A stretch of 64,000 nt of DNA from Gloeomargarita sp. SRBZ-1_bins_9 (lineage in GTDB: Bacteria > Cyanobacteriota > Cyanobacteriia > Gloeomargaritales > Gloeomargaritaceae). Below the pieces are notes generated by a model, which ran no database searches, had not been told where the DNA came from, and saw only the letters and a list, made by a program, of their open reading frames with translations. Location of the stretch: NCBI GenBank assembly GCA_039794565.1, contig JAUQVX010000001.1:186001-250000 (forward strand). Direction: 5' to 3'. Numbering within the stretch: the first letter of the stretch is position 1; each line of letters begins with the position of its first letter. The position numbers and the translations under genes are program-made. Below are positions 6,051 through 39,651 of the stretch, in pieces.

Positions 6051-6190
6051 TAGAAGCTGCGGGATCGCCCTGTCAAGATGGATTTCGCCAAGGATAAGGC
6101 TTTTTGGGCCTCAAACAGAGCTTGCCGTTTCCACACCGCCTTACGCTGCCGCTTGCGAGCCTTCGAGGTTTTCTTCTTGGGGACTGCCAT
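6011..6190 (-). CDS. rpmF: 50S ribosomal protein L32
   Basis: A 59-residue basic protein starting [20 protein letters not shown], the typical L32 N-terminus of cyanobacteria and plastids, followed by an acidic tail ending EEETDEES. The ATG at 6190 is chosen because conserved sequence starts there. It lacks the CxxC zinc motif found in some L32 forms. The 3' end overlaps coaBC by 40 bp on the other strand. Confidence 0.93.
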
Positions 6191-6321
6191 AAGCCGGGCC
6201 AAAGAATCGCAAAACATATTTCAATATAGCATTGACGGGGGAACAGCGCTCCATCCCCGGGCGGGCGTGTTATGCTATAGGAGTCCCAGTCTTAACAAAG
6301 GTTTACGTTTTAGGGGTGGGG

Positions 6322-36963: not shown

Positions 36964-37322
36964 ATGCGCACAAACAATTACTTGCGCTACTGGCGGGTGC
37001 AGCGGCTGTATTTGAACAAACTGCCGGTTTCGTCGTCGCCGGGGACGGAGCCGTAGCTCGAATGGGTGGTGGAAGCCTTGGTGCGCAAGCTGCCGGCAGA
37101 GCCAGGAGGTGATTAAATGCTAGGGCTGGCCGAACCCCGTTACAGCCGCTTCTACCAGGAAGTCTTCCAAGAAGGGGAAGCCACGGTTATCCTAGGTTTA
37201 CTCCAACGCCAGTTTGGCCCCTTGTCCCCCCCTGTCGGTGGTCCAACTGGAGGCGCTGGCGACTGCTGGAGTTTACTCACCCGGCTGATTTGGATAGCTG
37301 GCTGACGCACCATTCGGCCTGA
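36964..37322 (+). pseudogene. decayed Rpn/DUF2887-type nuclease-transposase with DUF4351 tail
   Basis: Four short pieces in different frames line up with the C-terminal half of Rpn-family (PD-(D/E)XK) proteins. They are YWRVQRLYLNKLP (ends in a stop at 37053-37055); LEWVVEALVRKLPAEPGG then a stop; MLGLAEPRYSRFYQEVFQEG and TVILGLLQRQFG; and, after further shifts, VVQLEALATAG and LEFTHPADLDSWLTHHSA. The last two match the DUF4351 end. The N-terminal nuclease half is missing. The final 50 bp overlap the mltA 3' end on the other strand. Confidence 0.7.
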
Positions 37323-38391
37323 TGGGACCAATAGCCGATTTCCTAGCCACCAGTAGCCAAAGGCGTCCGGGTTGTTTCATCAGTCCGGCCCGCAGTTCGG
37401 CAGTGGGTCCCTGACCCCAGAAAATATCCCCCCGCCCGTGCCCGCGGATGGCGTTGCCGGTGTCCTGCACCAACATAAAACGTGTCAGGGGCCGCCATGT
37501 CCTGGGATGGACTGGGTAGGTGGTTTCCACAAACACCAGACTGCCCGGCGGAATCAACGCTAAATCCATCGCCAGGGAGCGACCAGGCGTCAGGGGTTGC
37601 CCTAGGGAACCACTGGGGGGTTGCTCACGGGGGGCAAAAAAGATATAGCGCGGGTTGTGGTTGAAAACACGCTCGATTTCTTGGGGATGGCGCCGCAGGT
37701 AGTCCTTAATGGCGGGCATGGAAACGGTTTCGGGAGTAAGCACCCCTTCCTCCACCAGTAGCCGGCCGATGGAGCGATAGGGCTGGTGATTGTGACCGGC
37801 AAACCCCACCCACTGTCGGCGGCCATCGGGAAACACCAGCAACCCCGACCCCTGCACCTGCAAAAAGAAATGCTCAATGGGGTCCACATAACCCAGCACC
37901 GGCGCTTGTCCGGCCAGCATCCCCCGGCGAATGTCCGCCCGCGTCAGGGTCACCGGTCCGGGGTAGCCATGCACCGGCGTATTCCAAATGCCCTGGGGTT
38001 GGGTACGCGCCGCCACCACCGGCTGGTAATAGCCCGTGAAAAAGGCCGCTCCCTGGTCATTGCGACTTTCCCACACCAGAAACTGCCGGGCCAGTTGCTG
38101 TCGCCGTTGGGCAGGGGGCAAACGCATTACCTGGGCAAACAACCGCAGCGACGCCTGCATCTGCTGGGGGGTGTAGCTCTCCGCGCCGTAGGTGAAGCGG
38201 GTTTGGGGGTCTACCTGACGGTAATAGGCCAGAGACCGTTCTATGGCTTGGTGTAGGGTGGCCAGGGTGTCGTCATCTGTCCAGCTCAATTGGGCTACCT
38301 GCCGAGCTGTTAAGGGCACCAGCATCCCCTGCGCCCAGACGCTCCCAGGCCACCCCAGCAGCCAACCTACCAGCAACCATCCCCAGCGCAT
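37273..38391 (-). CDS. mltA: membrane-bound lytic murein transglycosylase A
   Basis: A 372-residue periplasmic lytic transglycosylase. The signal peptide is MRWGWLLVGWLLGWPGSVWA. The MltA domain includes FTGYYQPVVAARTQPQG and FLQVQGSGLLVFPDG, and the 3D domain LVQDTGNAIRGHGRGDIFWG carries the catalytic Asp. The last 16 or so residues (IRPNGASASYPNQPGE) are read from the reverse of the DUF4351 remnant, so this tail was probably acquired by loss of the original stop. Confidence 0.9.
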   Translation of the reverse strand: MRWGWLLVGWLLGWPGSVWAQGMLVPLTARQVAQLSWTDDDTLATLHQAIERSLAYYRQVDPQTRFTYGAESYTPQQMQASLRLFAQVMRLPPAQRRQQLARQFLVWESRNDQGAAFFTGYYQPVVAARTQPQGIWNTPVHGYPGPVTLTRADIRRGMLAGQAPVLGYVDPIEHFFLQVQGSGLLVFPDGRRQWVGFAGHNHQPYRSIGRLLVEEGVLTPETVSMPAIKDYLRRHPQEIERVFNHNPRYIFFAPREQPPSGSLGQPLTPGRSLAMDLALIPPGSLVFVETTYPVHPRTWRPLTRFMLVQDTGNAIRGHGRGDIFWGQGPTAELRAGLMKQPGRLWLLVARKSAIGPIRPNGASASYPNQPGE

Positions 38392-38546
38392 ACTTTTTAC
38401 CCTAGCACCCGCCGGCACCTGATTCTGGAAAAGCCCCCTTCCAGATAGGCCCTAAAGTGGGCAGACAAGGGGGGGCCAAAGTGAAAAAAGCCTGTGTGGA
38501 AGTCTGCCCCACCATAACGCGTGTTTGCACTCAGCCGGGGACAACA

Positions 38547-39331
38547 ATGACACAGGTGCACTATTGGCAGGCGAAAATTGGGGGGTTGCTCCACGACGGT
38601 TCGGGACGGGCAACGGAGGGGCTGTAGTCAGTTCTCCGGTTCATGCAAGAGTGGGTTTCCCCCAAGTCTAACCAGGCCATTGATACCAACAGAAATTAAG
38701 ATACATCAAATACATCGGTGATACCGACTGGATTGCCGCCGCCAGTGACCGCGCAGCCCTTGGGCATCCGCCCGTGGCCATCAATTGCAATTACGAAAAA
38801 GGAATACAGGGGTTTGCAGGAGACACGCTGTCGCGACGATGACCTGCAGCAGCGGGAAGAGAAAGTTATCCCCGAGGAGATTCGAGAGGAAGCTAAAACT
38901 AGCGATGGGGCCAAGGTGTTTTGGTGGTTTTGGCGCTGTTTTCCTAAGGCCCTGTGCCAGAAATTTGGCGATGAGAGTCTGAAACCCGTTTGCCGGATGG
39001 GTCCATCTGGAGCCATGCCAGCATCACGGCAGCGCTAGTGGGGGCCTTTGCAACCCAGCCCCATATCGCCAGTTTCACCTTTGACTCGGTCCAAGAACCG
39101 CATCAAATTTGTTGGGAATTGGCCAATACGGCCCTGACTGCCTGCTCCACCCCAGCCTGTGTGCCCAGCCTTTGATTGACCACTTCTGACTTTGTGAACT
39201 GGCTGGCGCAGCCGTCGCCGGAGCGATTGCTCACCGCCGGTTTTCCCAATGTCACACCAGCTCGCAAATTGAGGTTTGGGGTGGTCCACCGGTCAACCCA
39301 GCCCCTGACCCCCTTGTGGTCTAATTTGTAA
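38547..39331 (+). pseudogene. cmr2: decayed type III-B CRISPR cas10/cmr2 gene
   Basis: Successive fragments in all three frames match, in order, the N-terminal half of cyanobacterial Cas10/Cmr2. They are MTQVHYWQAKIGGLLHDGSG (38547, HD-like LLHD); FMQEWVSPKSNQAID; YIGDTDWIAAASDRAALGHP and VAINCNYEKGI; VIPEEIREEAKTS and KVFWWFWRCFPKALCQKFGD; MPDGSIWSHASITAALVGAF and ASFTFDSVQE; QYGPDCLLHPSLCAQPLIDH; and NWLAQPSPERLLTAGFPNV. There are at least five frame changes or stops, several internal deletions, and no palm/GGDD half. No other cas gene or repeat array is in the window. The family call is from remembered sequence, not a search. Confidence 0.75.
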
Positions 39332-39426
39332 AAAGTAAATAAAGATTTGTGTCTGCCAACGATGCGACCAGCGCCGGAAAGTCCCGTAACAGGTCTTGCA
39401 AAGCCGTCCCCACTCGCTAGGGATGT

Positions 39427-39651
39427 CTATAAATTGGAAACAGACTTGTAGGAATACATCTCCAGTTCTTCCGGGCGACAGGCCAAGCACCCCCCGCAGG
39501 TTGCCCGTTTTGCCCGTACCACCCGCCCTTTACGCACCAGCAACTCCAGCATCGGACGCACAGTTTCCGGGTCACTCCCTAACATCTGCGCTAGCGCGGC
39601 CAAGCTCAGGGGTCCCTTTTGCTGCAACAGGGCCTGTATCCGCTGCAACAT
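39427..39651 (-). CDS. feoC: FeoC-like winged-helix regulator
   Basis: A 74-residue protein. The winged helix (MLQRIQALLQQKGPLSLAAL ... MLGSDPETVRPMLELLVRKG) is followed by a Cys cluster region (ATCGGCLACRPEELEMY). FeoC binds FeoB and may hold an Fe-S cluster or sense oxygen. It is the last gene of feoA-feoB-feoC, 3 bp after feoB. The C-terminus is short and ends beside degraded DNA. Confidence 0.82.
   Translation of the reverse strand: MLQRIQALLQQKGPLSLAALAQMLGSDPETVRPMLELLVRKGRVVRAKRATCGGCLACRPEELEMYSYKSVSNL

What the first reader, a model, noticed from the sequence alone, without database searches (positions are those of the whole stretch)
38547..39331. Degraded cas10/cmr2: fossil of a type III-B CRISPR system
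Short pieces in changing frames spell out, in order, the N-terminal half of a Cmr2/Cas10 protein (YWQAKI..LLHD, AAASDRAA..P.AIN, KVFWWFWRCFP, SIWSHASITAAL, TFDSVQE, LLHPSL..QPLIDH, LLTAGFPN). The catalytic palm half, other cmr genes and any repeat array are absent. This suggests a lost RNA-targeting defence system.
Basis: partly seen in the sequence, partly recalled or inferred. Interest (0 to 1): 0.85.

Follow-up and report, generated by a model that had tools for sequence, protein, structure and literature searches.

The report
Decayed type III-B CRISPR locus
This stretch is the broken remains of a bacterial immune system (type III-B CRISPR-Cas) that closely related cyanobacteria still carry intact; the front third of one gene, the last bit of another and a single CRISPR repeat are all that is left, so it is a clear but fairly ordinary case of gene loss.

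Summary
Intact Cmr2 proteins of Gloeomargarita relatives match window 38541-39257 in order, with tblastn E-values down to 7e-47. About 685 aligned bases are 68% identical to the relative SKYG116, with one in-frame stop and ten indels, six of them frameshifting. In SKYG116 an intact 1011-aa cmr2 sits divergently beside mltA, in the same mltA-nanE-purH gene order. The fossil is therefore the orthologue decaying in place. Homology ends near codon 308 of 1011, so the palm half is gone, and no other Cmr2 or RAMP match exists in the genome.

Bases 39253-39324 are the C-terminus and stop of cas2. Bases 39340-39405 are a shrunken CRISPR leader. Bases 39406-39441 are one III-B repeat, 31/34 matching where the next best in the window is 20/34. 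The locus thus collapsed to cmr2'-'cas2-leader-repeat, an inferred loss of about 11 kb.

The cell still has a complete-looking type I-D system with its own array. A second lone leader-plus-repeat lies on contig C8. This is good evidence of in-place CRISPR erosion, but a known kind of event.

The parts
38547..39257 (+). cmr2/cas10 pseudogene, codons 1 to about 308 of 1011: N-terminal/HD region and most of Cmr2_N
   Evidence: tblastn with relatives' Cmr2, E down to 7e-47; alignment with G003, G004, G005 and G001 cmr2; indels and codon positions
38625..38627 (+). In-frame TAG stop (Trp in relatives) ending the 26-codon reading frame that starts at ATG 38547
39253..39324 (+). C-terminus and stop codon of cas2 (HTSSQIEVWGGPPVNPAPDPLVV*), fused to cmr2 by a deletion at about 39253-39258
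   Evidence: tblastn of G002/G005 Cas2 against the 64-kb window: best hit, E = 7e-6, same stop position; HMM of six Cas2 proteins: only hit among 1962 six-frame segments, E = 0.002
39340..39405 (+). Shortened CRISPR leader remnant
   Evidence: 94% identity over 49 bases (39340-39388) to the leader of the lone unit on contig C8, E = 5e-15; 84% over 43 bases to the leader of the G003/G004 arrays
39406..39441 (+). Single CRISPR repeat GTCCCCACTCGCTAGGGATGTCTATAAATTGGAAAC
   Evidence: 31/34 identical to the III-B-type repeat of G003/G004 arrays; next best place in the window 20/34; arrays with this repeat type adjoin cas1-cas2 in G002, G005 and G001; no second copy follows
39427..39651 (-). feoC; its last four codons and stop (39427-39441) lie within the CRISPR repeat
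   Evidence: ORF list, Pfam FeoC E = 9e-15, comparison with G004 feoC, whose tail differs after ..TYTY
37273..38388 (-). mltA (lytic transglycosylase), divergent neighbour; anchor of synteny with intact cmr2 in G003
   Evidence: Pfam MltA E = 3e-39; 84% identical in G003, next to intact cmr2

Best explanation
This is the eroded remnant of a chromosomal type III-B (Cmr) CRISPR-Cas locus of a Gloeomargarita-type cyanobacterium. Its ancestral order, as still seen in relatives, was cmr2-cmr3-cmr4-...-cmr6-cas1-cas2-leader-array, with cmr2 divergent from mltA. A deletion joined codon ~308 of cmr2 to codon ~70 of cas2. Modelled on relative G005 this removes about 11 kb: the rest of cmr2, the other cmr genes, cas1 and most of cas2. 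The array shrank to one leader-proximal repeat and was joined to the 3' end of feoC. The remaining cmr2 piece accumulated a stop, frameshifts (mostly deletions) and substitutions with little regard to codon position. It can no longer make a Cmr2 protein, and with no spacers left it can make no crRNA; the cell relies on a separate type I-D system. Shown: homology, order, synteny, absence elsewhere, decay, one repeat. Inferred: a single deletion, its size, the order of events and the absence of expression.
For: Co-linear significant matches to intact Cmr2. Intact cmr2 at the orthologous position in G003, followed by cmr3. Ten indels and a stop. Lineage-specific substitutions at codon positions 1+2 versus 3 are 40:22 in the window lineage and 18:25 in the intact G003 lineage (Fisher p = 0.03); the window ratio does not differ significantly from neutral expectation (p = 0.08) whereas G003 does (p = 9e-6). 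cas2 tail, leader and repeat in the right order and orientation. No other Cmr2, no RAMP and only a I-D cas1 in a 99.98% complete genome. Relatives carry the full locus with cas1-cas2-leader-array.
Against: The rest of the cmr operon in G003 lies off the contig end, so the ancestral cas1-cas2-array next to the mltA-linked cmr2 is inferred from G002 and G005, where the locus sits elsewhere. The array of G003 itself is on a different contig (C122). So the cas2/leader/repeat may have been joined to cmr2 by more than one rearrangement.
Confidence: 0.93

Rival explanations
1. Sequencing or assembly errors make an intact cmr2 look broken.
For: The genome is a draft in 21 contigs.
Against: Identity to the intact orthologue is only 68%, with ten indels of 1-79 bases and loss of 70% of the gene. 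The genome is 99.98% complete and has no other Cmr2 or RAMP match. Flanking genes are intact.
Confidence: 0.01
2. The fragment is a small foreign piece (a horizontally acquired or transposed cmr2 5' end plus cas2/leader/repeat) that was never a working locus at this site.
For: In G001, G002, G005 and G006 mltA has other neighbours, and the repeat and leader of G003 lie on another contig.
Against: G003 has intact cmr2 beginning beside mltA in the same orientation, followed by cmr3, with the same mltA-nanE-purH-holB order.
Confidence: 0.05
3. The leader-plus-repeat remains functional, for example as a promoter, a spacer acquisition site for another Cas1-Cas2, or a decoy or regulatory RNA, while the cas genes are dead.
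For: The repeat keeps 33 of 36 bases of the G003/G004 repeat (direct comparison, sequences) and a second lone leader-plus-repeat persists on C8. Lone or mini units also occur in G001, G003, G005 and G006.
Against: The window leader has lost most of its length, its repeat overlaps the feoC 3' end, and the only Cas1-Cas2 in the genome belongs to I-D with a different repeat. In G003 a lone repeat stands where G004 has a three-repeat array, which fits passive erosion.
Confidence: 0.05

Closest known systems
Type III-B (Cmr) CRISPR-Cas loci of Gloeomargarita relatives (G001-G005)
   Same: Same Cmr2 family, same CRISPR repeat type, similar leader; in G003 (SKYG116) the same chromosomal position beside mltA
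   Different: Intact in the relatives; reduced to cmr2'-'cas2-leader-repeat in the window genome
CRISPR3 (Cmr2-dependent, type III) of Synechocystis sp. PCC 6803 (PMC3575380)
   Same: Cmr2-based cyanobacterial system; crRNA tag AUUGAUUGGAAAC resembles the repeat end ATAAATTGGAAAC here
   Different: Plasmid-borne and expressed; the window copy is dead. No direct sequence comparison was made here
Decayed or orphan CRISPR loci, such as the E. coli I-F locus that lost its cas genes and kept a small array (reviewed in PMC8616872)
   Same: Loss of the cas genes with a small repeat remnant left behind
   Different: Different subtype; in E. coli the remnant spacers target cas genes, whereas here no spacers remain, and the I-D spacers of this genome show no match to III-B genes

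Membership tests
Cas10/Cmr2 (type III-B large subunit), as a pseudogene | Sequence homology to Cmr2 in order along the protein | tested here: met
   tblastn E down to 7e-47, co-linear; the intact orthologue L016:198-3230 is Cas10b in PADLOC (1020 bits) and Cmr2_N plus palm2 in Pfam
Cas10/Cmr2 (type III-B large subunit), functional | Open reading frame encoding both palm domains | tested here: not met
   Homology stops at codon ~308; one in-frame stop and six frameshifting indels; no palm match elsewhere in the genome at E<=10
Type III-B CRISPR-Cas locus, functional | RAMP genes cmr1/3/4/6 present | tested here: not met
   PF03787 search of the own genome at E<=1: no match; 2-7 matches in each of five relatives
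Type III-B CRISPR-Cas locus, remnant | III-B-associated repeat, leader and adaptation genes beside cmr2 | tested here: met
   cas2 C-terminus, leader remnant and one repeat directly follow the cmr2 piece
CRISPR array | At least two repeats separated by spacers | tested here: not met
   Only one repeat at 39406-39441; no direct repeat families in the window; two genome-wide matches, each single
Type I-D CRISPR-Cas (elsewhere in the same genome) | cas3d, cas10d, csc2, csc1, cas6, cas4, cas1, cas2 and array | tested here: met
   PADLOC hits for Cas3d, Cas10d, Cas7d, Cas5d, Cas6d, Cas4d and Cas1d; 98-aa Cas2-like ORF; eight-repeat array at the end of contig C14

The most novel reading that the evidence does not exclude
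Lone leader-plus-repeat units (window 39340-39441, the better kept one at C8:57842-58028, and similar units in relatives) are not only debris but persist as dispersed, selected elements, such as dormant spacer-acquisition sites or small-RNA genes, after their Cas proteins are gone.
Probability: 0.05. Interest if true: 0.6.

Novelty: new member of a known kind. Interest (0 to 1): 0.33.

Why it matters
It is a well-anchored example of in-place CRISPR-Cas erosion in Gloeomargarita-type cyanobacteria (by recall, the lineage nearest to plastids): one sister keeps cmr2 intact at the same position, and the decay steps (internal deletion joining cmr2 to cas2, array collapse to one repeat, feoC running into the repeat) can be read base by base. 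It shows that small fossils of adaptation genes, leaders and single repeats can be recovered next to a cas gene when relatives are used as guides, which array finders that need at least two repeats miss.

Tried and rejected
Pfam Cmr2_N profile on the own genome: no hit, because the frame is broken. Rfam over the window: only a tRNA. Direct-repeat search in the window: none, since only one repeat remains. Anti-cas self-targeting as the cause of loss: seven I-D spacers show no significant match to any III-B locus. A cmr2 remnant beside the lone repeat near mltA in G001: none found. A script line comparing the 36-base repeats was off by one base for the window copy and its counts were discarded; the 31/34 value comes. 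Literature: nothing found on III-B loss in Gloeomargarita.

Full report
Setting. The window is G000:C1:186001-250000 of a 2.22-Mb, 99.98% complete draft genome. Same-genus relatives include Gloeomargarita sp. SKYG116 (G003; contig of 79,567 bases) and Gloeomargaritales VI4D9 (G005). G001, with 3,049,282 bases, is G. lithophora by recall of its genome size. The window therefore comes from a Gloeomargarita-type cyanobacterium.

The observation. Three-frame translation of 38401-39420 shows all the quoted peptides in order. Intact Cmr2 open frames from the relatives (found with PF12469 in five of the eight genomes) match this interval by tblastn, with E-values of 7e-47 (G001), 7e-43 (G002), 2e-41 (G005) and 5e-30 (G003), in co-linear pieces in three frames. 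Searching the whole own genome with G003 Cmr2 at E<=10 returns only this place, so no second copy and no displaced palm half was found.

What is broken. A DNA alignment with four intact genes shows an ATG at 38547 followed by 26 codons and a TAG where relatives have Trp. Indels relative to G003 are -24, +17 (frameshift), -79 (frameshift), -1 (frameshift), +9, -16 (frameshift), -21, -63, -4 (frameshift) and -17 (frameshift). Identity over 685 aligned bases is 68%. Substitutions assigned to the window lineage fall 40:22 on codon positions 1+2 versus 3; on the intact G003 lineage they fall 18:25 (Fisher p = 0.03). The window ratio is compatible with no constraint (p = 0.08) while the G003 ratio is not (p = 9e-6). 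Homology to cmr2 stops at about 39257, codon 308 of 1011. The N-terminal region and most of Cmr2_N survive; the palm domains (for example palm2 at residues 716-863 of the intact protein) are gone.

Same place in a sister. In G003 an intact 1011-aa cmr2 (L016:198-3230, minus strand) stands divergently next to mltA, with nanE, purH, the 225-aa ORF and holB in the same order as in the window; cmr3 follows at the contig edge, 96% identical in DNA to the G004 operon. In G001, G002, G005 and G006 mltA has other neighbours. So the fossil is best read as the orthologue of the G003 gene, decayed where it stood.

The bases after the cmr2 break were compared with all fetched loci and gave three further pieces, in the order of the complete locus of G002 and G005. 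First, 39253-39324 encodes HTSSQIEVWGGPPVNPAPDPLVV and a stop, the C-terminus of the III-B Cas2. G002 Cas2 matches at E = 7e-6, the best hit in the 64-kb window, and a profile of six Cas2 proteins hits only this segment out of 1962. Second, 39340-39405 is a shortened CRISPR leader: 49 bases are 94% identical to a leader on contig C8, and it resembles the leaders of G003/G004 arrays. Third, 39406-39441 is one repeat, GTCCCCACTCGCTAGGGATGTCTATAAATTGGAAAC. It matches the repeat of the G003/G004 arrays at 31 of 34 positions, when the next best place in the window scores 20. Arrays with this repeat type directly follow cas1-cas2 in G002, G005 and G001. In G005 the distance from cmr2 codon 308 to the cas2 tail is about 11.3 kb, which is the inferred size of the deletion.

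The right edge. feoC (39427-39651, minus strand) ends inside the repeat: its last four codons and stop are repeat bases. G004 FeoC is alike up to the residues before that point and then differs. FeoC C-termini vary anyway, so no effect on function is claimed.

The rest of the genome. RAMP genes: none. cas1: one, in a complete-looking type I-D operon (cas3d, cas10d, cas7d/csc2, cas5d/csc1, cas6d, cas4d, cas1, cas2-like ORF) with an eight-repeat array running off the end of contig C14. A genome-wide search for the III-B repeat finds two single copies: the one in the window and one at C8:57993-58026 with a longer leader and no cas gene. Comparable lone or mini units occur in G001 (beside mltA), G003, G005 and G006. 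In G003 the lone repeat stands where G004 has a three-repeat array with 96% identical flank, so a one-repeat and a three-repeat state of the same array are directly visible within the genus.

Mechanism and cause. The simplest account is loss of most of the locus by deletion, array collapse by recombination between repeats, and neutral decay. Self-targeting by the remaining I-D system was tested with seven spacers and not supported, though older spacers may have been lost. Genome reduction (2.2 Mb versus about 3 Mb in G001, G002 and G005) is a plausible background and is inference only.

Subtype. In G005 the operon has Cmr2 and Cmr4 over their NCBIfam cut-offs, Cmr3 and Cmr6 with significant E-values but under the curated cut-offs, and no recognised Cmr1 or Cmr5. 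The III-B label thus rests on Cmr2, Cmr4 and the weaker Cmr3/Cmr6 matches.

Verdict. Loss and decay of CRISPR-Cas loci are well known (reviewed in PMC8616872), so this is a new, well-documented member of a known kind.

Noticed in passing
L099 1350-1536 (G000:C8:57842-58028): A lone CRISPR leader plus a single III-B-type repeat between a tgt-like gene and a FAD-oxidase-like gene (gene names by eye, not searched), with no cas genes; leader better kept than the one in the window.
   Followed up: partly
L061 11335-19999 and L062 (G000:C14): Complete-looking type I-D CRISPR-Cas operon with WYL regulator and an eight-repeat array cut by the contig end.
   Followed up: partly
L132 about 6129 (G003:C192) and L134 6221-6402 (G004:C19): Orthologous site with one repeat in G003 and three repeats plus leader in G004: two array sizes caught between sister species.
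   Followed up: partly
L096 about 6159-6192 (G001:C1:2987158-2987192): Lone III-B leader plus repeat about 0.4 kb from mltA in G001, in the same orientation relative to mltA as the window fossil; may mark a shared ancestral locus or be coincidence.
   Followed up: partly
window 39427-39441: The stop codon and last four codons of feoC are made of CRISPR repeat bases.
   Followed up: partly
L062 spacer 2 versus L136 3319-3335 (G000:C1): A 17-base exact match between a I-D spacer and a chromosomal gene of the same genome (E = 0.002); probably chance.
   Followed up: no
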